Shown here: one piece after another, positions 29,793-40,337 of the stretch
How the letters are laid out: every line of letters starts with the position of its first letter
Position numbering within the stretch: position 1 is the first letter of the stretch
Assembly (NCBI GenBank): GCA_017444825.1
Contig: JAFSVU010000016.1
Coordinates: 1-64,000, forward strand
DNA length: 64,000 bases
Direction: 5' to 3'
Origin: Clostridia bacterium
GTDB lineage: Bacteria; Bacillota; Clostridia; UBA1212
Translations under genes and position numbers: made by a program
Notes under the pieces: model-generated
What the model saw: the letters and a program-made list of their open reading frames with translations, nothing else
Databases searched by the model: none
Told to the model about the DNA's origin: nothing

Positions 29793-32306
29793 ATGGACAG
29801 AACTGATTTGATCCCGGAGGGGACAATACTTAATAACAGATATGAGGTCAAAGCCTTCCTTGGCATGGGAGGCATGTCTGTCGTTTACGAGGCGAGAGAC
29901 CTGGAGCTTAATATCGACGTTGCGCTGAAGGTGCTGAAGAGCGAATTCTCCGGCAGTGCGGAGCATATTGAGAGACTTGAAAGAGAAGCTTCCAACGTCA
30001 GCGGGCTGAGGCACCCGAATATCGTAAAGGTCTACGGACTTGGGCACTTCAACGGAAAGCATTACATCGCGATGGAAAAGATCAACGGTGTAAACGTGGA
30101 TGACCTCATAAGACAGGGCGGAGCGCTCGACTGGAAAGACTGCACCGAGATAATGAAGCAGGTGCTGGAGGCTCTGTGCTACGTGCATTCGAGGGGTGTC
30201 ATCCATAAGGACATCAAGCCTCAGAACATACTGGTCGACGAGAACAAGCATGTGACGCTCACCGATTTCGGCATCGCAAAAACCAATCGCCCCGACTCCT
30301 TTACAAGGACAGCCGGCGACAGGGACGGGTCCGTATACTACATGGCTCCCGAGCAGGAAGAGGAAGGCACCACCGACAAGAGAACCGATATTTTCTCCCT
30401 TGGCGTCACTTTCTACGAGATGCTCATTGGCGCTGTGCCTTTCGACGGTGATTCCGCAGGCTCCGTGGCTATTAAACGCAACAAAAACAACGTCATTCCT
30501 CCGTGTACCATTGACGAGCTCATACCGAGAGCCGTCAGCGACGTGGTGGTGAAAGCCACTATGAAGAAGCCGGAGGACAGGTTCCAGAGCGCAGAAGAGA
30601 TGCTGGAGGCCCTTGTGATGGCCGAAAAAGCGCCTGACATACCCATAGTTTCGGCACAGTACATGCTCGACAAGGGGATAATCGATGAGGATTCGGAGCT
30701 GGCCGTTGCCGAGGGAGCGAAGAAGAAAACTCCTTCCGAGGAGCTCAATCAGAACGCCGGAAATGACGACGAAGCGGGGCAGGGACCTCAGTTTGACAGA
30801 GCAGCGCAGGATCAGCCTTTGAGGGGACCCAGATACATCGCCAATGCCGAGTCCTCCGTTGAATACGCCGACAGGCCCAGAAACGGTGGAAAGCGGTTCG
30901 TCGCAATAATTGTTATCGTGTTTTCGATTATACTTGCGGCCGCATTGGTTTGGTTCTACGTCGACTACTACATCGATAATAGGCCCGTAAACGAGGAGGG
31001 CGAGATCGAAAAGCAGTTCAAGGTGATGGACTACAGAGGCCATTATGCCAAAGACGTTATCGAGATGCTCGCCGCCAATGGCATAAACACTTCGGTAAAC
31101 AAGGTCGAGTCCGACGAATACCCGTCAGGCTACATCCTTTCACAGAACAAGGTGGCGGGAATGCTGCTGAAGAAAGGCGACATTATTACGCTTAACGTGA
31201 TCCTGGAGAAGGACAGCGAGATCCTTGACAATTACGTCGGAAAATCCATCCAGACATACGAGAGCGTCCTGAAAAACAAGGGACTCAATATAAAGACAGT
31301 GGAAGTCAGCGGCAACGCATCCGCAGGAACGATCCTCAGCATGAGTCCGCCCGCAGGCGATACCGTGAAGAGAGGCGACACGATCACCATCTACATCTCT
31401 AAGGGCAACTACGGAAACACCGTGATAATGCCTGACTTTATAGCCGATCTTGAAAAAAATCCGGTATCCTACGAAGAAGCGGTGAAGGCGCTTGAACTCG
31501 TCGGGTTGAAGCTTAAGGCCGCATATCCGGATCCCGATGTGGACCTCACGATCTATTTCATGACGCCTACACCGGCACCCACTCCTTCACCGGAGCCCAC
31601 GGACACGCCTACGCCTTCTCCTACGCCCACCGTGACGCCGACCAATACCCCAAAACCTACGGATACCGCTACTCCCGAGCCCACTCCGGAGGACGAGACG
31701 CCCACTCCGACGCCTACGCCTACGGATACGCCCACGCCCACTCCGACACCTACCCCGACGCCCACACCGTCTCCTACGCCGACCGCGACGCCCACACCGT
31801 CGCCTACGCCTACGATCACGCCTGTGCCGACGGCGACACCTGAGCCCACGAAACCGCCTTACCAGTCCTACAAATACGTGGTGGGACAGTACCCGGCTCC
31901 CGGTACGGAAGTGCTTTGGGGATCTGAAGTCACTCTCTATTTTTACGAGAAAGAAGAGCTTGACAGAGTCTCGCTTCCCGTGATCGAGTTTATCGAGTGG
32001 CCGTCGAACCTGAAGGGCGAAGAGATATCGATCATAAAGATCGACTTCATCTCAAAGAGCGGCGAGCGCAAGGTATTCTCAAAGAGCAACGTTAAGAAGG
32101 ACGAGTTCCCGCTTCCCATTGACGTACCCTTCAACTGGGGCGACACCGAAACCACCATGAAGGTCTACATCAACGATCTGGACAACATCTACTACATGAA
32201 GAAGGTCACCAGAACTCCCGAGCAGATGGTGCCCACGGAGATTCCCGAGGAGTGGTATTATACGCCCGCTCCGGATGAATCGGACAAGACGATCTATGGC
32301 AACTGA
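29793..32306 (+). CDS. prkC: PASTA-domain Ser/Thr kinase with split third PASTA
   Basis: Membrane kinase that senses muropeptides or lipid II. The kinase domain (about 15-280) has [11 protein letters not shown] (ATP loop), [15 protein letters not shown] (catalytic Asp; Lys replaces the common Arg) and DFGIAK. The TM helix is at about 367-390. Two PASTA domains follow (about 408-472 and 473-538). A third begins near 541 ([10 protein letters not shown]) and seems interrupted by a Thr-Pro-rich stretch of about 100 residues (590-688) before [20 protein letters not shown] beta-rich domain ends the protein. At 837 residues it is longer than usual. Its stop overlaps the rsgA start. Confidence 0.93.
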
Positions 32307-33225
32307 CACTGTTTTGAGCCGCGAAAAGCTGCCGTGCGAGGGAAAGATCATACGCGGAATCGGCGGCATATATACGGTGGCCGGGGAAGGAAATCTTTAT
32401 GATGCAAAGCCCCGGGGTATTTTCAGACTCAGATCGGTAAAACCAATGGTGGGCGACAACGTCACCGTGGCGGTGGACCGGGAAGAGGGCAGCGGCTTTG
32501 TGATCACCGAGATCATGCCCCGCAAAAACTCTCTGGTTAGGCCCGCTGTCGCCAATGTTGACTGCGTCCTGTTCATTATAGCTGCCGCAAACCCGAAGCC
32601 GGATCTGGCGCTTCTTGACAAGCTGCTTCTTTCCGTAAGAAAAAAAGGGGCCGCTGTCATGCTGGTCATAAACAAGAGCGACATTGACGGTGCTGCGGCG
32701 GAGAACATTAAAAACGAGTATAAAAACTGTGTGGACGGCGGTGTTTTCGTGGCATCCCTTGAAGGCGATGGCGCAGATGAGACCGCAAAAAACATAAAAG
32801 ACGTGATCCCGAAGGGCGTGACGGTCCTCTGCGGACAGTCGGGCGTCGGAAAATCCACACTTACAAACAGGCTTCTTTCCAGGGACGCCATGCAGACAGG
32901 CGGCCTCAGCGCAAAGACTGAGCGGGGAAAACACACCACGAGACACTCGGAACTTTTCGATGCAGGCGACGGTAAATACCTGATAGATTCACCCGGGTTC
33001 AGTTTCTTCGACGTGTTCGACGTTTCCTTCAGAGAACTTCCGGACTATTACCCGGAATTTGACGGACACGCTCCCTGCAGATTTCAGGACTGCAGCCACA
33101 CAGGCGAGCCCGGCTGCTGCGTAACGGAGCTCCTTTCATCCGGAAAGCTTTCCAAAGGCCGCTACGGGCGTTACAAAGAGATATATGAAGAACTCCTGGA
33201 AAAGGACAAAAACAAGTATAAATGA
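32296..33225 (+). CDS. rsgA: Ribosome small-subunit GTPase RsgA
   Basis: Circularly permuted GTPase for late 30S maturation. Order: N-terminal OB fold ([13 protein letters not shown]), G4 NKSD, G1 [10 protein letters not shown]3 DSPGF, then a zinc site [14 protein letters not shown]. The start at 32296 overlaps the prkC stop by 11 bases; an ATG at 32275 is also possible. Neither has a clear ribosome site, so translation is probably coupled to prkC. The prpC-prkC-rsgA-rpe order is common in Firmicutes. Confidence 0.94.
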
Positions 33226-33250
33226 TCCCGGTATACGGGACGGAGGTTTT

Positions 33251-33898
33251 ATGGCAACAGTTTCGGCTTCAATGCTTTCCTGCGATTTTTCGGCAATGGG
33301 AAGAGACCTTGAAAGAATTCAAATTGCCGGCGCAGACATGGCGCATCTGGATATAATGGACGGTGCATTCGTCCCCAACATCACCTTCGGCGCGCCTGTC
33401 ATTAAAAAGCTCCTCCCGTTCAAAAAGATCCCATTTGAATCCCATCTGATGATCGAAAATCCGGAGAGATACATAAACGACTTCAGGGATGCCGGATCTG
33501 ACATAATCATTGTCCATGCGGAGGCCACAAGGCATCTGGACAGACTTATCAGCCAGATAAAAGAGACGGGGGCAAAGGCCGGTGTGGCGCTAAATCCCGC
33601 AACTCCTCTTTCCGCAGTCTCGGAGGTCCTGGGAAATATCGATATTCTTCTCCTCATGACCGTGAACCCGGGCTTCGGTGGACAGAAGTTTATTTCCTAC
33701 GTCACCGAAAAAGTGTCACAGGCCGCAAAGATCAGAAATGATAAGGGTCTTAGCTTTCTCATAGAGACCGACGGGGGCATTGACGGAACCACGGGACCTG
33801 CCGTGGCGGCACTGGGATGCGACATATTGGTTTCGGGTTCATATATTTTTAGGAGCCCGGACGTTAAAAAGGCCATAGATTCCCTTAAAAACGCTTAA
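33251..33898 (+). CDS. rpe: Ribulose-phosphate 3-epimerase
   Basis: Interconverts ribulose-5-P and xylulose-5-P in the pentose phosphate pathway; TIM barrel. It shows SASMLSCDF (the common form is SILSADF), HLDIMDGAFVPNITFG, MTVNPGFGGQKF, ETDGGI (usual VDGGI) and LVSGSYIF. The 215 residues are typical. The start at 33251 has CGGAGG 6 bases upstream; a longer frame begins inside rsgA but lacks a site. It would link the xylose genes at 42-45 kb to central metabolism. Confidence 0.93.
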   Translation: MATVSASMLSCDFSAMGRDLERIQIAGADMAHLDIMDGAFVPNITFGAPVIKKLLPFKKIPFESHLMIENPERYINDFRDAGSDIIIVHAEATRHLDRLISQIKETGAKAGVALNPATPLSAVSEVLGNIDILLLMTVNPGFGGQKFISYVTEKVSQAAKIRNDKGLSFLIETDGGIDGTTGPAVAALGCDILVSGSYIFRSPDVKKAIDSLKNA

Positions 33899-33919: not shown

Positions 33920-34606
33920 ATGATCATCAAATCGAGCATTGCCGGGATCAACACAAAATTTGACACCGACAATAAACACATAATAAAAAACCTTGACGTA
34001 TTCCGCCATGATTTCAGAGGCGAGCCCAGCATATCCGTGAAGGTCAACGACCTGGAGCTTCGGAACTACATGGAAAAATACGGCGGCAATGACGAAAACG
34101 CCGACTACAGGCTCACCGCGGACAGCTTCTTCAATGCTCTCCCTGAGTTCGACGGCTTCGGTATCAAAGCGGCCACTGTGTCCATAAGATCGAAAAATAT
34201 TGTTATTGCGGCAGCCGGAGAGAAGGCAAAACTTGAATATTTAAACGCTCTCCTTTCCTGCGGCCCCGCCGCATCGCTCATTGACGACGCATATTCGGCC
34301 ATCAGGAAGCTGGAAGGCAAGCTCTACGTCTTCGGCACTCCCTGGTCCTCAAAGGTGGAGTCAAACAAAAAGCTGGAACTTTCAGCCATAGTGATCCCTT
34401 CCGACGTTACAAGCATCAAAAAAGCGGAGCGCAAGGAGATTCTCGACCGCATGCTCATATGTCTCACATTGCCAAAGCGCGCCGAGCAGCTGCCATTGGT
34501 TCTTGCAAACGTTGACGGTATCGAGGCTGACGTGCCGGTGCTGCTTGTGCCCGAAAATGATCCTTCCTCGCTCTATTCATATATGGAATTCGGAATTTCG
34601 GGCTGA
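33920..34606 (+). CDS. HPr-kinase/PEPCK-like protein lacking a P-loop
   Basis: 228-residue protein that I do not recognise as a named gene. The middle resembles HprK/PEPCK-fold kinases: IDDAYSAIRKLEGKLYVFGT then PWSSKVESNKKLELSAIVI (about 121-159) matches the usual order DD...G..v.GTPWSGK....N....L.AIV. The position where a Walker A loop would be (about 94-105) reads VIAAAGEKAKLE and lacks GxxxxGK(S/T). It may be catalytically dead, or a sensor or binding version. Purines before the start (cggaga) lie 10 bases away. It sits between rpe and rqcH on the same strand. Confidence 0.5.
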   Translation: MIIKSSIAGINTKFDTDNKHIIKNLDVFRHDFRGEPSISVKVNDLELRNYMEKYGGNDENADYRLTADSFFNALPEFDGFGIKAATVSIRSKNIVIAAAGEKAKLEYLNALLSCGPAASLIDDAYSAIRKLEGKLYVFGTPWSSKVESNKKLELSAIVIPSDVTSIKKAERKEILDRMLICLTLPKRAEQLPLVLANVDGIEADVPVLLVPENDPSSLYSYMEFGISG

Positions 34607-34630: not shown

Positions 34631-36376
34631 TTGGCTTTTGACGGCATTGTTGCAAGATGCATAAAGTGGGAACTTGAGGGGATAGCCACCGGCGGAAGAG
34701 TTTCCCGTGTGTTTCAGCCCGAGCGGGACGAGATCGTTCTTGTGATTCGGAACAACGCCGAAAATTTCAGACTTCTCATATCCGCCAATGCGGGCAACTC
34801 GAGACTTGGCATAACCAATGTCTCCAAGGAGAATCCTATGGACGCTCCTTCTTTTTGTATGGCCCTGCGAAAGCATCTTATCGGCGCCGAACTTACCGCA
34901 GTAGAGCAGGTGGACTGCGACCGTATACTGAAGCTTGTTTTTGCCACGAGAAACGAGATGGGAGACCCGGTAACCCGCTGTCTGGTCTGCGAGATAATGG
35001 GCCGCTACAGCAATATCGTGCTCTTAAACGAGAAGGGCGTCATTATCGACTGCATCAAACGTGTGGATGAGCGCACCAGTTCGTACAGAGAGGTGATGCC
35101 CGCAAGGGTGTACAAGCTTCCTCCGCCGCAGGAGCGCATACTGCCCCAGTCTCCCGACGCATTTGAAAAGTTTACCGAGGCGTTTATGAGCGCGGGACCG
35201 GGCGACACTGTATCGGGCTTCCTCCAGAAGAACTTTTCCGGGTTTTCAAAAAGGATCGCAGAAGCGGCTTCAAGGGCCTCCGGCGTTGACCCGAATATGA
35301 AAACAGAGCTCCTTAATGACGCCAAGGAGCAGCGCTCCTCATTTTTTAACGTGATAAAGGACCTGATAGATGACATTGCCGAAAACAGGTATGCTCCGGC
35401 CATTTTGACCGACGGCAACGGCACCTATTCGGATTTTCACGTCATTGGTTTGTGCAGAGAGGAAAAATATATTCCTTTTTCCACCGCTTCAGGCTGCGTT
35501 GACGAGTTTTTCAAGGGCAGGGATGAGGCGCTCCACCGTAAAAACGCAACTCTTGAGCTTACAAAGGCACTCAAAAACGCTGTTGAGCGCACTGAGCGGA
35601 GGCTTCACGGATACGAGGAGGACCTTTCCGGGTCCCGGGAGTTTGAGGATTACAAGCTGAGAGGCGAGCTTCTCACCGCGAATCTTTATGCTCTTTCGGG
35701 TGGCGAGAGCGAGATAAAAGTCATTAATTATTTCGATGAATCTATGCCTGAGATCACGATACCTCTCGATCCCCACATTTCACCGTCGGCCAACCTGAAG
35801 AACTACTTCCGGATATACAAAAAGAAGAAGGGAAAGGCGGAAAATGCCGCCAAGGGCAAGGTCATTGCCGAGAATGAACTCGAATACCTGGCCTCCGTCC
35901 GCTACGCACTGGAGCACGTTGAGGGTGCCGAGTCGGTCTCCGAGATACGGGAGGAACTGATACAGGGCGGATATTACAAGCCAAGGAAGGAGACCGGAAA
36001 GAAGCGCCCGCCTTCCGTTAAACGCAACAATTTTGAGGAGCTTTCCACAAGCGACGGCGTTCCTGTCTGGGCGGGCCGCAACAATATCCAGAACGACCTT
36101 ATAACGACGAGGCTGGCTGCCCCGAACGATATGTGGTTCCATGTGAAGAACTACCCCGGCGCCCACGTGATACTGAGGCTTTCGCTGACCGGCGGCTCTT
36201 TTACCGCGGCGCAGCTTGTGGAAGCCGCGACCATTGCCGCGAAGAGGAGCGGTTTTACCGACGGAGGCACCTGCGAGGTGGATTATACCAGGGTCAAGCA
36301 TGTGAAGAAGCAGAGCGGGGCGAGGCCGGGGATGGTCAACTATACGGAGTATAAAACTATTGTTGTAAAATTTTAA
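34631..36376 (+). CDS. rqcH: Ribosome quality-control protein RqcH (NFACT)
   Basis: Binds stalled 50S-peptidyl-tRNA complexes and adds alanine tails to truncated peptides. The 581 residues hold the N-terminal NFACT-N domain (FDGIVARCIKWEL, SRLGIT, MGRYSNIVL), a helical or coiled middle region (about 290-430), and the NFACT-R domain (WAGRNNIQND, WFHVKNYPGAHVIL). The start is TTG at 34631 with ACGGAG about 11 bases upstream. A repeat array follows the stop. Confidence 0.92.
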   Translation: MAFDGIVARCIKWELEGIATGGRVSRVFQPERDEIVLVIRNNAENFRLLISANAGNSRLGITNVSKENPMDAPSFCMALRKHLIGAELTAVEQVDCDRILKLVFATRNEMGDPVTRCLVCEIMGRYSNIVLLNEKGVIIDCIKRVDERTSSYREVMPARVYKLPPPQERILPQSPDAFEKFTEAFMSAGPGDTVSGFLQKNFSGFSKRIAEAASRASGVDPNMKTELLNDAKEQRSSFFNVIKDLIDDIAENRYAPAILTDGNGTYSDFHVIGLCREEKYIPFSTASGCVDEFFKGRDEALHRKNATLELTKALKNAVERTERRLHGYEEDLSGSREFEDYKLRGELLTANLYALSGGESEIKVINYFDESMPEITIPLDPHISPSANLKNYFRIYKKKKGKAENAAKGKVIAENELEYLASVRYALEHVEGAESVSEIREELIQGGYYKPRKETGKKRPPSVKRNNFEELSTSDGVPVWAGRNNIQNDLITTRLAAPNDMWFHVKNYPGAHVILRLSLTGGSFTAAQLVEAATIAAKRSGFTDGGTCEVDYTRVKHVKKQSGARPGMVNYTEYKTIVVKF

Positions 36377-36486: not shown

Positions 36487-38088
36487 ATGGAGAAAAGCTA
36501 TTTTGACCGGTTTGGCGTGATGATCGACAATTCGAGGAACGCCGTAATGAATGTGGAGTCGGTTAAACGGTACATCGACCTTTTGGCGAAGGTGGGCTGC
36601 GACTTTCTGATGCTCTACACCGAGGATACGTACGAGGTGAACGGCAGGCCCTATTTCGGCCGCTACAGAGGCAGGTACACCAAGGAGGAATTGAAGCTCC
36701 TGGACTCCTATGCGAGGACTAAGGGCGTCGAGCTTTGCCCATGCATTCAGACCCTTGCCCACCTCAACTGCATAATGCGCTGGCCCGAGTTCGGTAGACT
36801 TTCGGACAGCGGGGATACACTCTGTGCAGGCGACGAGGAGGTCTACAGGCTTATCGACGACATTTTTGCGACTCTTAACGAGTGTTTTACGTCAAAGACG
36901 GTGAATATCGGCATGGACGAGGCGGAGAACATTGGTTTGGGCAGATATCTAAGAGAGCACGGCCTCGAGAACCGGATGGACATCCTTGTGAGACACCTTA
37001 GAAGGGTGGCGGAGATCGCGGCTAAGTACGGCTTCAGCCTGCTTATGTGGGGCGATATGTTCTATAAGCTCACGGGAGGGCCTGAGGACAAGGCGGCTTT
37101 TGACAAGAAGCTTTCGGAGAGCATCCCCGAAAACGTAAACCTGATCTATTGGGATTATTATTCACTCGACAAGGCTCATTACGATTCAAGGATCAAAAAC
37201 TACAGGAAGCTCAGGGAGGACGTCTGGTTTGCCGGCGGGCTCTGGACCTGGTCGGGCTTTACTCCACATATCAGTTATGCGCTCAAGGCGACCGAGGCGG
37301 CTGTCAAGGCCTGCATTGATCACAATGTGAAAAACGTTTTCATGACACTCTGGGGCGACAACGGCGGCGAGACCAGCAGATTTTCCGTGCTTCCCGCACT
37401 TTTTGCGGCGGCGGAGTTTTCAAGGGGCAATTTCGACATGGGGCTGATCAAAGAGCGGTTTGAAAAGGAATTCGGCATTGGTTTTGATGATTTCTGCCTG
37501 GTGGAACTTCCGGATACGCCCAACACCGACAATTCCTCCATCAACAATCCCGAAAAATACATGCTCTACTCGGATCCTTTCATGGGTGTTCTCGATTCTC
37601 TGGTCAAAGGGGATGAGGGTGCAAGATACGAGGCTGTCGCGAAAAAGCTTGAAAAGATGACAAGCGGAAACGAGTACGCGCCTGTTTTTGACGTCGCATA
37701 TAAACTCGCCAATGTGATCGCCCTGAAGTATGACCTTGGCGTTAAGACAAGAGCCCTTTACGTGAGCGGCGACAAAGAGGGCCTTAAGAAGATGGTGCCG
37801 GTGTACGATGAGGTCATTGCCCGGATCGGGCTTTTCTACGAGGCTCTCAAAAAGTGGTGGATGATGGAGAACAAGCCCCACGGCTTCGATGTGCAGGACA
37901 TCAGGATAGGCGGCCTTTTGATGCGGGTCAAACACTGCAGAGAGAGGCTGGCGGATTATGCTGCCGGAAAGACAGACCGTATAGAGGAGCTTGAGGAACC
38001 TGAGCTTAATCCGTTCTGCGCGGGAGACGTGAAGGGCGCCGTATGCTACAACTCGTGGTCGTATTCCGCAAGCTGCAACGTTCTCTAA
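36487..38088 (+). CDS. GH20-type beta-N-acetylhexosaminidase
   Basis: Likely removes terminal GlcNAc/GalNAc from glycans. The barrel has FDRFGVMIDNSRN, HLNCIMRWPEFG, the catalytic pair in NIGMDEAENIGLG (Asp-Glu, about 154-155), LLMWGDM and LIYWDYY. The 533 residues have no signal peptide, so it is probably cytoplasmic and acts on imported oligosaccharides. AAGAGG precedes the start by 6 bases, within the repeat array. First in a run with a GH29 fucosidase and a sugar kinase, which points to use of mucin or milk-type glycans. Confidence 0.85.
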   Translation: MEKSYFDRFGVMIDNSRNAVMNVESVKRYIDLLAKVGCDFLMLYTEDTYEVNGRPYFGRYRGRYTKEELKLLDSYARTKGVELCPCIQTLAHLNCIMRWPEFGRLSDSGDTLCAGDEEVYRLIDDIFATLNECFTSKTVNIGMDEAENIGLGRYLREHGLENRMDILVRHLRRVAEIAAKYGFSLLMWGDMFYKLTGGPEDKAAFDKKLSESIPENVNLIYWDYYSLDKAHYDSRIKNYRKLREDVWFAGGLWTWSGFTPHISYALKATEAAVKACIDHNVKNVFMTLWGDNGGETSRFSVLPALFAAAEFSRGNFDMGLIKERFEKEFGIGFDDFCLVELPDTPNTDNSSINNPEKYMLYSDPFMGVLDSLVKGDEGARYEAVAKKLEKMTSGNEYAPVFDVAYKLANVIALKYDLGVKTRALYVSGDKEGLKKMVPVYDEVIARIGLFYEALKKWWMMENKPHGFDVQDIRIGGLLMRVKHCRERLADYAAGKTDRIEELEEPELNPFCAGDVKGAVCYNSWSYSASCNVL

Positions 38089-38107
38089 ACCGTGATGGAG
38101 GTGCCGC

Positions 38108-39355
38108 ATGATAATTAACCAATACATCAGAGATTTTGAAAACCTCGGCCTTGGCATGTTCGTGCATTTCGGTCTTTATTCCATCCTCGGACGGGGGGAG
38201 TGGGTCCGCTCCCTTGAGAATATACCCGCGGAGGAATACGAAAGCCTGACGGACCGGTTTGACCCGAAGGAGGGCTGGGCGGAGGAACTTGCGGAAAATG
38301 CCAAAAATGCGGGCTGCGGGTACATCACCCTGACGGCGCGCCATCATGACGGCTTTTCCCTTTACGACACTTGCGGGCTGACTGATTTTGACGCTCCACA
38401 TGCGCTCTGCGGCCGTGATATAGTGAAGGAGTTCGTTGACGCGTGTAACAAGCGTGGGCTCAAGCCGTTTTTCTACCACACGCTCCTTGACTGGCATGAA
38501 CAAACGTACCGCACCGACTTCAAGGCGTACCTCAAGTACCTTCGGAAGAGCATTGGCGTGTTATGCAAAAATTACGGTAAAATAGGCGGTATCTGGTTTG
38601 ACGGCATGTGGGACAGGCCCGGCGAAGACTGGGAGGAGGACGCGCTTTACGCCACCATCAGAGAGTTTCAGCCGGAGGCCATGATCATAAACAATACGGG
38701 TCTTGACGCAAGAGGAGCCCTTGGCCATATTGAGCTTGACAGTGTGACTTTTGAACGGGGCAATCCGAAACCTATAAACCTTGAAAGCTCCCCAAAATAC
38801 ATCGCTTCCGAGATGTGCGAGGTGATGAACGACTGCTGGGGCATCGGCTTTAACGACCTGAACTACAAGTCGCCGGCAATGCTCATAGAGGAGATGGTGC
38901 TCTGCAGAAGGACACGCGCCAATTTTCTTATGAACACGGGACCAAGGCCGGACGGCAGCCTCAGAACTGTGGACCGGGGCATTTTTGAGCTCATTGGCCG
39001 GTGGATGGAGAAGTTTGGCGACATCTTCAGGTATGCCGTGCCGACGTCCCAAGCCGCGGTCCTGGAAAAGGAAAAGGATTTTATTCTCGAAAAAGACGGC
39101 AAGTTTTATCTTTTCTGCTTTGGTCTTCCCACCGTGGCCGACCCCAATGTCTCCGGCAGGGTGTGGGCAGATTATGACGTGAGAATAAAGCTGAAAGAGC
39201 CTACAACGGGCCGCATTGCCGTCACCGCAATTGACACAGGCGAAAGTCTGCCGTATGATCTTGAGGACGGTATACTCACTGTTCACGGAACACCGTTCAA
39301 ATTCGGCAGCAATCTTGTTGTAAGAGTTATTGAAATTACGATCGGAGGAAAGTAG
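38108..39355 (+). CDS. Alpha-L-fucosidase (GH29)
   Basis: Retaining fucosidase, 415 residues, without a signal peptide. Motifs: LGMFVHFGLYSI, YITLTARHHDGFSLYD, IGGIWFDGMWDRPG (nucleophile Asp) and NFLMNTGPRPDG. Short beta-sandwich C-terminus. GATGGAGG lies 8 bases before the start. It lies 19 bases after the GH20 gene and its TAG stop is one base before the next ATG, so the three genes form an operon. Confidence 0.92.
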   Translation: MIINQYIRDFENLGLGMFVHFGLYSILGRGEWVRSLENIPAEEYESLTDRFDPKEGWAEELAENAKNAGCGYITLTARHHDGFSLYDTCGLTDFDAPHALCGRDIVKEFVDACNKRGLKPFFYHTLLDWHEQTYRTDFKAYLKYLRKSIGVLCKNYGKIGGIWFDGMWDRPGEDWEEDALYATIREFQPEAMIINNTGLDARGALGHIELDSVTFERGNPKPINLESSPKYIASEMCEVMNDCWGIGFNDLNYKSPAMLIEEMVLCRRTRANFLMNTGPRPDGSLRTVDRGIFELIGRWMEKFGDIFRYAVPTSQAAVLEKEKDFILEKDGKFYLFCFGLPTVADPNVSGRVWADYDVRIKLKEPTTGRIAVTAIDTGESLPYDLEDGILTVHGTPFKFGSNLVVRVIEITIGGK

Positions 39356-39356
39356 A

Positions 39357-40337
39357 ATGTCTGATTTCAGAAAAAATGATATAGTTGCGATCGGCGAAGT
39401 GCTCATCGATTTCACCACGGAAAGCAAGGACGCAGGCGGTTACCCGATGCTTCAGGCCCATCCGGGCGGTGCTCCAGCGAACTTTCTTGCCGCTGCCGCA
39501 AAGCTTGGTTTCAACACCGGTTTCATTGGCAAGGTCGGCAACGACGCCTTCGGCCGGCTCCTCCTCAAAACTCTTTCGGAGAAAAACATCGACACTTCCG
39601 GTGTCATCATAACCAATGACGCCTTCACGACTCTCGCATTCGTCACCCTCGACGAGAAGGGCGACCGTGAGTTCTCGTTTGCCCGCAAGCCCGGCGCTGA
39701 CAGCATGCTTACTACCTCCGAGGTCTCCGAGAACATGATCAAAAACGCCTCGATCCTACACATGGGCTCGCTCCTCATGACCACCAAGACCGGAACCGAC
39801 TCGACCTTGAGAGCCTGCGAGATCGCCCGCGAAAACGGCCTGATCATCTCCTACGACCCCAACTACAGACCGCCCCTATGGTCCGACCCCGAGGAGGCCA
39901 AAACCAAGATGCTCCTCGGCGCCCGCCAGGCGGATATAATGAAGATATCCGAGGAGGAGGTCGAATTCATGTTCGGCTTTGACCGCAAAAATGCGGCAGA
40001 AAAGCTCCTCGAGGCCCTCCCTCAGCTTAAGATCGTCATGGTCACTCTCGGCCCCGACGGTGCCATCATCCGTTCCGGCGCCAATGAAGTCAGTATCAAA
40101 GCCCCCAAGGTCACCCCGATCGACACGACCGGTGCAGGCGACATCTGCGGCGGCAGCTTCGCTGCCCAGCTTCTCCGCCTGCCCGAAGAGGCCCGCATCG
40201 CCTACTTCAAAAAGGGCGAGCCCGTTCCAGCCGATGTGCTTGAAAAAGCAGGCACCTATGCAGTCTGGGCCGCAAGCACGTCGACCCAAAAGCACGGGGG
40301 GATGGACAGCGTGCCGGAGGAAAAGGAGTTTGTTTGA
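39357..40337 (+). CDS. PfkB-family carbohydrate kinase (fructokinase-like)
   Basis: Sugar kinase of 326 residues. PfkB signatures: GEVLIDF, HPGGAPANFLAAAAKLG and DTTGAGDICGGSF (anion hole and catalytic Asp). The layout is like fructokinase ScrK, but PfkB kinases vary in substrate. The start at 39357 has CGGAGG 8 bases upstream, within the end of the fucosidase gene. Codons from about 39.6 kb are strongly C-ending. A repeat array follows the stop. Confidence 0.88.
   Translation: MSDFRKNDIVAIGEVLIDFTTESKDAGGYPMLQAHPGGAPANFLAAAAKLGFNTGFIGKVGNDAFGRLLLKTLSEKNIDTSGVIITNDAFTTLAFVTLDEKGDREFSFARKPGADSMLTTSEVSENMIKNASILHMGSLLMTTKTGTDSTLRACEIARENGLIISYDPNYRPPLWSDPEEAKTKMLLGARQADIMKISEEEVEFMFGFDRKNAAEKLLEALPQLKIVMVTLGPDGAIIRSGANEVSIKAPKVTPIDTTGAGDICGGSFAAQLLRLPEEARIAYFKKGEPVPADVLEKAGTYAVWAASTSTQKHGGMDSVPEEKEFV

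What the first reader, a model, noticed from the sequence alone, without database searches (positions are those of the whole stretch)
33920..34606. HPr-kinase/PEPCK-like protein that has lost its P-loop
The string FGTPWSSK and preceding IDD match the kinase fold, while the Walker A position reads AAAGEKAKLE. Set between rpe and rqcH, it may be a dead sensor of phosphosugar state or a new enzyme.
Basis: partly seen in the sequence, partly recalled or inferred. Interest (0 to 1): 0.5.

Follow-up and report, generated by a model that had tools for sequence, protein, structure and literature searches.

The report
Dead peptide kinase kept beside rqcH
One genus of uncultured Clostridia keeps a protein with the shape of a peptide-phosphorylating kinase whose ATP-binding site has been erased while its front end became the best-conserved part, so it probably works by binding something and not by phosphorylating it.

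Summary
The ORF at 33920-34606 (228 aa) is real and has the HprK/PEPCK fold (model pLDDT 92.7; PEPCK Z 12.0; HprK/PEPCK hits persist when only the six same-genus sequences inform the model). GK[S/T] of Walker A, the catalytic His and the second catalytic Asp are gone in 6 of 6 genus members; all 30 other genes that the intact profile found in 31 genomes of the order keep GK[S/T].

The interpretation needs changing. The intact orthologues, in the same slot after rpe in two sister genera (3 genomes), sit with a PqqD/RRE protein and a signal-peptidase-like protein, core parts of lasso/LPP peptide-tailoring clusters, and HPr was found in 0 of 9 genomes of the taxonomic family. The window's genus lost those partners at this locus and the ATP site, yet kept the gene. 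Conservation moved to residues 1-83 (22 of 28 invariant positions, against 11 of 39, 10 of 46 and 4 of 30 in three sets of intact kinases).

Best explanation: a pseudokinase retained as a binding protein through its N-terminal lobe (0.6); ligand unknown. Slow decay is the main rival. Adjacency to rqcH looks like a by-product of gene loss. New variant of a known kind; interest 0.45.

The parts
33920..34606 (+). Gene X: HprK/PEPCK-fold pseudokinase, 228 aa, ATG start with GGAG upstream
   Evidence: homologues; fold
33920..34168 (+). Residues 1-83: N-terminal lobe, the best-conserved part in the genus (22 of 28 invariant positions); Lys83 replaces the His of intact kinases
34202..34243 (+). Residues 95-108: erased Walker A (VIAAAGEKAKLEYL where intact members have e.g. 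LFSAPSGTGKSTHA)
   Evidence: GK[ST] in 0 of 6 genus members
34268..34306 (+). Residues 117-129: erased catalytic Asp/Lys motif (LIDDAYSA where intact members have e.g. IINDDKPA); second Asp is A/S/T in 6 of 6
34334..34354 (+). Residues 139-145: GTPWSSK, remnant of GTPWSGK; T140 and P141 invariant in the genus, the second Gly lost
33185..33898 (+). rpe, ribulose-phosphate 3-epimerase, 21 bases upstream of X
34631..36376 (+). rqcH (NFACT family), 24 bases downstream of X, same strand, TTG start
32275..33225 (+). rsgA GTPase, part of the conserved block
29793..32306 (+). PknB-type Ser/Thr kinase with PASTA domains, part of the conserved block

Best explanation
X is a pseudokinase. It descends from an HprK-like kinase of the type that, in lasso-peptide and LPP (linear polyphosphorylated peptide) clusters, phosphorylates a Ser of a peptide presented by a PqqD/RRE protein. 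In an ancestor shared with the sister genera a kinase-PqqD-peptidase set sat directly behind rpe. In the window's genus the PqqD and peptidase genes at this locus were lost, rqcH came to follow X, and the ATP site of X was erased. Shown: homology, fold, locus, loss of the site in six of six members, open frames, fewer amino-acid changes than silent ones, and the shift of conservation to residues 1-83. Inferred: X no longer transfers phosphate and now acts as a non-catalytic binding protein through its N-terminal lobe, which may already have been the substrate- or partner-binding part of the kinase. The invariant Lys83 (for His) and Asp122 (for Asn) may fill or lock the emptied nucleotide pocket. 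The ligand is unknown; an unmodified peptide or protein is my first guess.
For: Fold: model pLDDT 92.7, pTM 0.87; PEPCK Z 12.0, 3.4 A, 207 residues, and HprK 3tqf/1kkl/2qmh among the Foldseek hits. A control model built only from the six genus members finds HprK first, E 1.5e-4, with PEPCK. Dead site: His 0/6, GK[ST] 0/6, second Asp 0/6, Lys125 0/6, against 23/23, 23/23, 23/23 and 22/23 in intact homologues. In the order, 30 of 30 other genes found with profile A2 keep GK[ST]; in the class scan 28 of 28 non-genus loci that were read do (the further rows were not read). Locus: rpe-X in 6 of 6 genus members (G005: end of rpe at E 2.7e-6), PknB-rsgA-rpe-X in 5 of 5 where the contig reaches that far, and in 3 of 3 sister-genus genomes, where X is intact and followed by PqqD (over cut-off 3 of 3) and a signal-peptidase-like gene. 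The six X form one group, 100/100. Selection: X is open in 6 of 6; residues 1-82 are more identical than 83-150 in 15 of 15 genus pairs, and the reverse holds in the 12 of 12 intact pairs that I chose; Fisher p 6e-5, 2e-6 and 8e-7 against three chosen sets of six intact kinases of similar identity; closest pair dN 0.31, dS 2.23.
Against: Constraint is uneven: residues 83-150 are weakly held (pN 0.39-0.56), and in pairs with G005 the last third is nearly unconstrained (pN 0.55-0.60, pS 0.63-0.69). For the closest pair X changes 4.4 and 3.4 times faster than Rpe and RqcH (dN 0.31, 0.07, 0.09), for G000-G002 2.0 and 1.7 times, for G000-G003 1.7 and 1.4 times; three intact pairs give 1.4-2.2 times, so faster evolution after the loss is clear only in the closest pair. 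pS is near or at saturation in most pairs. Foldseek TM-scores are modest (about 0.5 to PEPCK, 0.29-0.39 to HprK, normalised by X). Residues 1-65 are predicted with confidence only when intact homologues are in the alignment. No ligand, partner or expression data. The window protein itself keeps a Lys at the Walker Lys column (1 of 6).
Confidence: 0.6

Rival explanations
1. X is a slowly decaying remnant. After the PqqD and peptidase partners were lost the kinase became useless; what remains is constrained only because the folded protein, or translation through it into rqcH, must not be harmful.
For: Weak constraint in residues 83-150 and in the last third of G005; fast evolution in the closest pair. 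Partners absent beside X in 6 of 6, and not found over threshold in the assemblies of 4 of 6 (G000, G001, G002, G004; G001 is 77% complete).
Against: Open frame in 6 of 6 over distances where silent sites are near saturation; 22 invariant residues in 1-83, ten of them Lys, Arg, Asp, Glu or Asn; His-to-Lys in 6 of 6. Relaxation alone would not make the formerly more variable lobe the best-kept part.
Confidence: 0.22
2. X is an enzyme with a rebuilt active site: Lys83, Asp122 and the retained T-P loop form a new catalytic centre, with or without a nucleotide bound in another way.
For: K83, D122, T140 and P141 are invariant in 6 of 6 at or beside the old active site.
Against: The stretch 83-150 that holds the old P-loop is among the least conserved parts. 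D122 and K83 can equally be a structural salt bridge. I saw no known cofactor motif by eye; none was searched for beyond the family libraries.
Confidence: 0.12
3. One reading: X is a dead sensor of phosphosugar or HPr state.
For: It lies next to rpe and has the HprK fold.
Against: HPr found in 0 of 9 genomes of the taxonomic family; the adjacency to rpe was inherited from a kinase that sat with PqqD and a peptidase.
Confidence: 0.04
4. X is an active kinase with an unusual P-loop.
For: The window protein keeps a Lys at the Walker Lys column; the first Asp column is D or E in 6 of 6.
Against: That Lys is not kept in the other five; His and second Asp, which a review reports as needed in lasso kinases, are gone in 6 of 6.
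Confidence: 0.02

Closest known systems
LppK, HprK-like kinase of linear polyphosphorylated peptide (LPP) clusters (PMC13381572, Nat Commun 2026)
   Same: Intact orthologues of X in the sister genera are followed by a PqqD/RRE-type and a signal-peptidase-like protein; five of 11 more distant regions also have NTP_transf_5: the set LppK-LppB-LppS-LppN.
   Different: X has no ATP site and no RRE or peptidase beside it. No convincing LPP-type precursor motif was seen in 15 regions (one chance match in a 648-codon frame). The MsbA-like transporter was not looked for.
Lasso-peptide Ser kinases PadeK/ThcoK/PsmK (PMC9266682)
   Same: Described as homologous kinases with an essential His-Lys-Asp-Asp set; intact homologues of X keep His, Lys and Asp at what I take to be the matching columns.
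   Different: X lacks the His and second Asp in 6 of 6. No lasso cyclase or B2 protease was seen among the neighbours identified; none was searched for by profile.
SynChlorMet ScmC (TIGR04249), HprK-related kinase A (TIGR04352)
   Same: Intact homologues match these NCBIfam models weakly, below cut-off (best 2.1e-11, 43.7 bits against 125, for ScmC).
   Different: X itself gives no match at E <= 1.
HprK/P (TIGR00679, PF07475) and PEPCK
   Same: Fold.
   Different: No P-loop, HPr not found in the genome, no sequence-level match.

Membership tests
HprK/PEPCK P-loop fold | Overall fold | tested here: met
   control with genus-only alignment (core 66-228, block 141-150 at pLDDT 54)
HprK/PEPCK P-loop fold | Walker A GK[S/T] | tested here: not met
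   0 of 6 genus members against 30 of 30 other genes found in the order
HprK/P (HPr kinase/phosphorylase) | Match to TIGR00679 / PF07475 | tested here: not met
   No match for X
HprK/P (HPr kinase/phosphorylase) | HPr substrate in the genome | tested here: not met
   PF00381 in 0 of 9 genomes at E <= 0.01, 7 of 14 controls ring
Lasso/LPP peptide kinase | His-Lys-Asp-Asp catalytic residues | tested here: not met
   His 0/6, second Asp 0/6, Lys 1/6; motif from passages of PMC9266682, column assignment mine
Lasso/LPP peptide kinase | Adjacent RRE (PqqD-like) and leader peptidase | tested here: not met
   Absent next to X in 6 of 6; present in 3 of 3 sister-genus loci
Lasso/LPP peptide kinase | Common descent with the kinases of such gene sets | tested here: met
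   Homologues and same locus; not compared directly with the LppK or ThcoK sequences
Pseudokinase | Kinase fold with catalytic residues lost, kept under selection | tested here: met
   the selection estimate is rough because pS is near saturation
Pseudokinase | No phosphotransfer in vitro | not testable with these tools
   Needs purified protein

The most novel reading that the evidence does not exclude
A peptide-tailoring kinase was recruited in one bacterial genus as a non-catalytic peptide- or protein-binding factor in a housekeeping gene block (PknB-rsgA-rpe-X-rqcH), possibly serving ribosome-associated quality control or signalling of the PASTA kinase, with a locked nucleotide pocket (Lys83-Asp122).
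Probability: 0.2. Interest if true: 0.7.

Novelty: new variant of a known kind. Interest (0 to 1): 0.45.

Why it matters
Pseudokinases are well known among eukaryotic-type protein kinases (recalled). For the unrelated HprK/PEPCK fold I found none described in three searches of the held library: 'HPr kinase' with 'pseudokinase' (2 papers held the terms, one listed, a phosphorelay review), 'HprK' with 'P-loop' and 'degenerate' (one, on GlmR), and a four-term search (none) (listings only, neither paper was read). Here the before and after states sit at the same locus in sister genera, and the partner genes beside it were lost in the same genus. That is a natural experiment on what a peptide kinase is for once it can no longer phosphorylate. 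It also points to residues 1-83 as a candidate substrate- or partner-binding lobe in the intact kinases.

Tried and rejected
Sequence libraries (Pfam, NCBIfam, PHROGs, PDB sequences) gave nothing useful for X; a near search of plasmids gave no match. The L030 match (G011) lies in a 917-aa frame that I recognise from memory as a carbamoyl-phosphate synthase, so I dropped it; the weak G001:C59 match (E 0.08, 1418-aa frame) was dropped too. A hidden intact X paralogue in the window's genome: not found, the intact profile matches only X. An intact kinase elsewhere as the source of X: G003 and G005 do carry a second, intact kinase with PqqD and peptidase beside a lepA-like gene (lepA label by eye), but the tree places these two among other kinases, away from X. 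The tree does not resolve which intact kinase is the sister of X; that it is the sister-genus one rests on locus and on identity over residues 1-82 (G006 31%, the other 22 at 11-24%). LPP-type precursors in 15 regions: none convincing. Promoter/terminator scan was uninformative: 4 and 4 sites against 2.0 and 2.2 expected. The TAA counted inside the G005 match is that gene's own stop codon. Errors of mine: one search read minus-strand loci on the wrong strand (redone); searches used faulty patterns (redone, the five left over read); the table missed the G003 intact kinase because a longer frame overlapped it (read). The statement that X evolves faster after the loss is now limited to the closest pair.

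Full report
What is there. The ORF 33920-34606 (+, 228 aa) follows rpe by 21 bases and precedes rqcH by 24 bases; upstream lie rsgA and a PknB kinase with PASTA domains. I call it X. No sequence library gives a useful match. The window's genome holds one copy.

Relatives. Of 58 related genomes 30 had a match at E <= 0.01, of which one (L030) is spurious by inspection. The five other genomes of the same genus (G001-G005) carry X at 32-53% identity. A separate scan of GTDB contigs found five loci, whose contig lengths equal those of the five genus genomes; their titles are Clostridia bacterium RGIG10266 and RGIG10301 (both marked yak rumen), 'Mageeibacillus' UBA1243 and UBA1212, and uncultured 'Ruminococcus' RUG12790. 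Outside the genus the homologues read are intact kinases of the pattern HSSAV...GTGKSTH...INDDKP...GTPWSGK.

The lost site. On an alignment of 29 sequences (6 X, 23 intact) the old Walker A and Asp motifs align without internal gaps; the GTPW loop has a one-residue gap in G001 and G004. His83 is present in 23 of 23 intact sequences and is Lys in 6 of 6 X; GK[ST] 23 of 23 against 0 of 6; second Asp 23 of 23 against 0 of 6 (A/S/T); Lys125 22 of 23 against 0 of 6; the Walker Lys column 23 of 23 against 1 of 6, the window. In the order (31 genomes, 27 with a match) profile A2 gave 37 rows: 6 are X, the other 31 rows are 30 genes, and all 30 have GK[ST]; the weakest of these 30 are longer frames that may belong to other HprK-like groups. 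In the class scan with the X profile (391 genomes, 73 with a match) 30 loci were returned; 28 are not of the genus and all 28 have GK[ST]; the remaining rows were not read. Loss of the site is thus confined, as far as read, to this genus, and the six X form one group in the tree (100/100).

Fold. With 21 sequences in the alignment the model has pLDDT 92.7 and pTM 0.87; Foldseek finds PEPCK (best E 1.3e-5, TM about 0.5) and HprK (3tqf, 5.0e-5, TM 0.35), and VIA-align gives Z 12.0 to Thermus PEPCK over 207 residues at 3.4 A. Because intact relatives could impose the fold, I repeated the prediction with the six X alone: mean pLDDT 68.7, residues 1-65 below 50, the rest mostly 75-92 with a dip to 54 at 141-150, and the hits are still HprK first, with PEPCK. 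Strand 92-96 and helix 101-112 flank the former P-loop in both models.

Locus history. In G000-G004 the order is PknB-rsgA-rpe-X-rqcH-GH20-fucosidase-like-sugar-kinase-like (5 of 5); in G005 the contig ends 387 bases upstream of X, where the end of rpe is still recognisable (E 2.7e-6), and downstream the order is the same. In the sister genera (G006, G007, G008) PknB-rsgA-rpe-X is the same, X is intact, and it is followed by a PqqD gene (PF05402 43.1, 28.6 and 37.5 bits, cut-off 23.4) and a signal-peptidase-like gene (below cut-off in all three); rqcH is convergent beyond them. Of 11 regions from more distant genomes, 5 have PqqD over cut-off after the kinase, 6 a separate signal-peptidase-like gene matched below cut-off, one a fused domain of that kind (weak PF00717), one such gene by eye only, 5 have NTP_transf_5 over cut-off, 2 show none of these nearby and one contig ends; window Rpe finds no match in any of the 11. 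PqqD over cut-off and the peptidase are not found in G000, G001, G002 and G004 (G001 is 77% complete; G001 and G004 have sub-cut-off PqqD matches inside larger frames); G003 and G005 have both at another locus together with a second, intact kinase that groups elsewhere in the tree. So X is kept in genomes where no intact kinase of this kind was found.

What the intact kinases do. A 2026 paper (PMC13381572; outline with abstract, passages, and sections 6 and 12 read) describes LPP clusters: HprK-like kinase LppK, RRE LppB, SipW-like leader peptidase LppS, NTP transferase LppN, transporter. LppK puts several phosphates on one Ser of the precursor. A review (PMC9266682, passages only) reports that lasso kinases need His, Lys, Asp, Asp. 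The gene sets around the intact relatives of X resemble this; that they make LPPs is not shown, since no convincing precursor with the published motif was found in 15 regions. A rumen survey (PMC7533575, passages only) reports HPr-kinase-like, PqqD and nucleotidyltransferase genes with lasso clusters in rumen bacteria.

Selection. Identity over residues 1-82 exceeds that over 83-150 in 15 of 15 pairs of X, and the reverse holds in the 12 of 12 intact pairs that I listed. Of 28 invariant positions in X, 22 lie at or before residue 83; in three sets of six intact kinases chosen by me, with mean identity 0.42, 0.45 and 0.39 against 0.40, it is 11 of 39, 10 of 46 and 4 of 30 (Fisher p 6e-5, 2e-6, 8e-7; sequences within a set are related, so p is indicative). 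G006, the nearest intact relative over this part, already has 13 of the 22, including R-x-E-P, so much of the N-lobe conservation predates the loss. pN/pS is 0.36-0.74 across 15 pairs with pS 0.64-0.83; for the closest pair dN is 0.31 and dS 2.23. Against this, in that pair X changes 3.4-4.4 times faster than RqcH and Rpe; other genus pairs such as G000-G002 and G000-G003 give 1.4-2.0 times, and intact pairs G007-G008, G006-G007 and G006-G008 1.4-2.2 times. Residues 83-150, and the last third in pairs with G005, are barely held.

Interpretation. The simplest account of a lost catalytic site, lost neighbours, a kept frame and a moved conservation is a pseudokinase that lives on as a binding protein (0.6). 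Decay in progress is next (0.22). A rebuilt active site (0.12) is kept open by the invariant Lys83 and Asp122. HPr or phosphosugar sensing (0.04) is unlikely because HPr is found in 0 of 9 genomes while 7 of 14 control genomes ring. A role with RqcH is possible, but adjacency alone does not argue for it.

Noticed in passing
L084 8547-10226 (G008); G007:C2 near 26489: About 5 kb past the kinase-PqqD-peptidase set, the sister genus carries a second PqqD gene (over cut-off); in G008 it is followed by a short peptidase-like ORF and a radical-SAM-like ORF (labels by eye): a second possible peptide-modification cassette.
   Followed up: partly
L082 5206-7190 (G005) and G003:C5:8872-10245: Two members of the window's genus carry an intact HprK-like kinase with PqqD and signal-peptidase-like genes beside a lepA-like gene, in addition to the dead copy behind rpe.
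   Followed up: yes
L005 (G003 X): This copy of X has a Glu/Pro-rich C-terminal tail of about 75 residues that the other five lack.
   Followed up: no
window, about 31590-31860: The PknB-PASTA kinase has a long Pro-Thr repeat linker (TPTPTP...) before its last part.
   Followed up: no
G000-G008: HPr (PF00381) was found in 0 of 9 genomes of the taxonomic family, so the PTS phosphorelay may be missing from the group (five of the nine assemblies are incomplete or contaminated).
   Followed up: partly
window 36487-40337: A GH20, a fucosidase-like and a sugar-kinase-like gene (the last two named by eye) follow rqcH in the same order in all six genus members.
   Followed up: no
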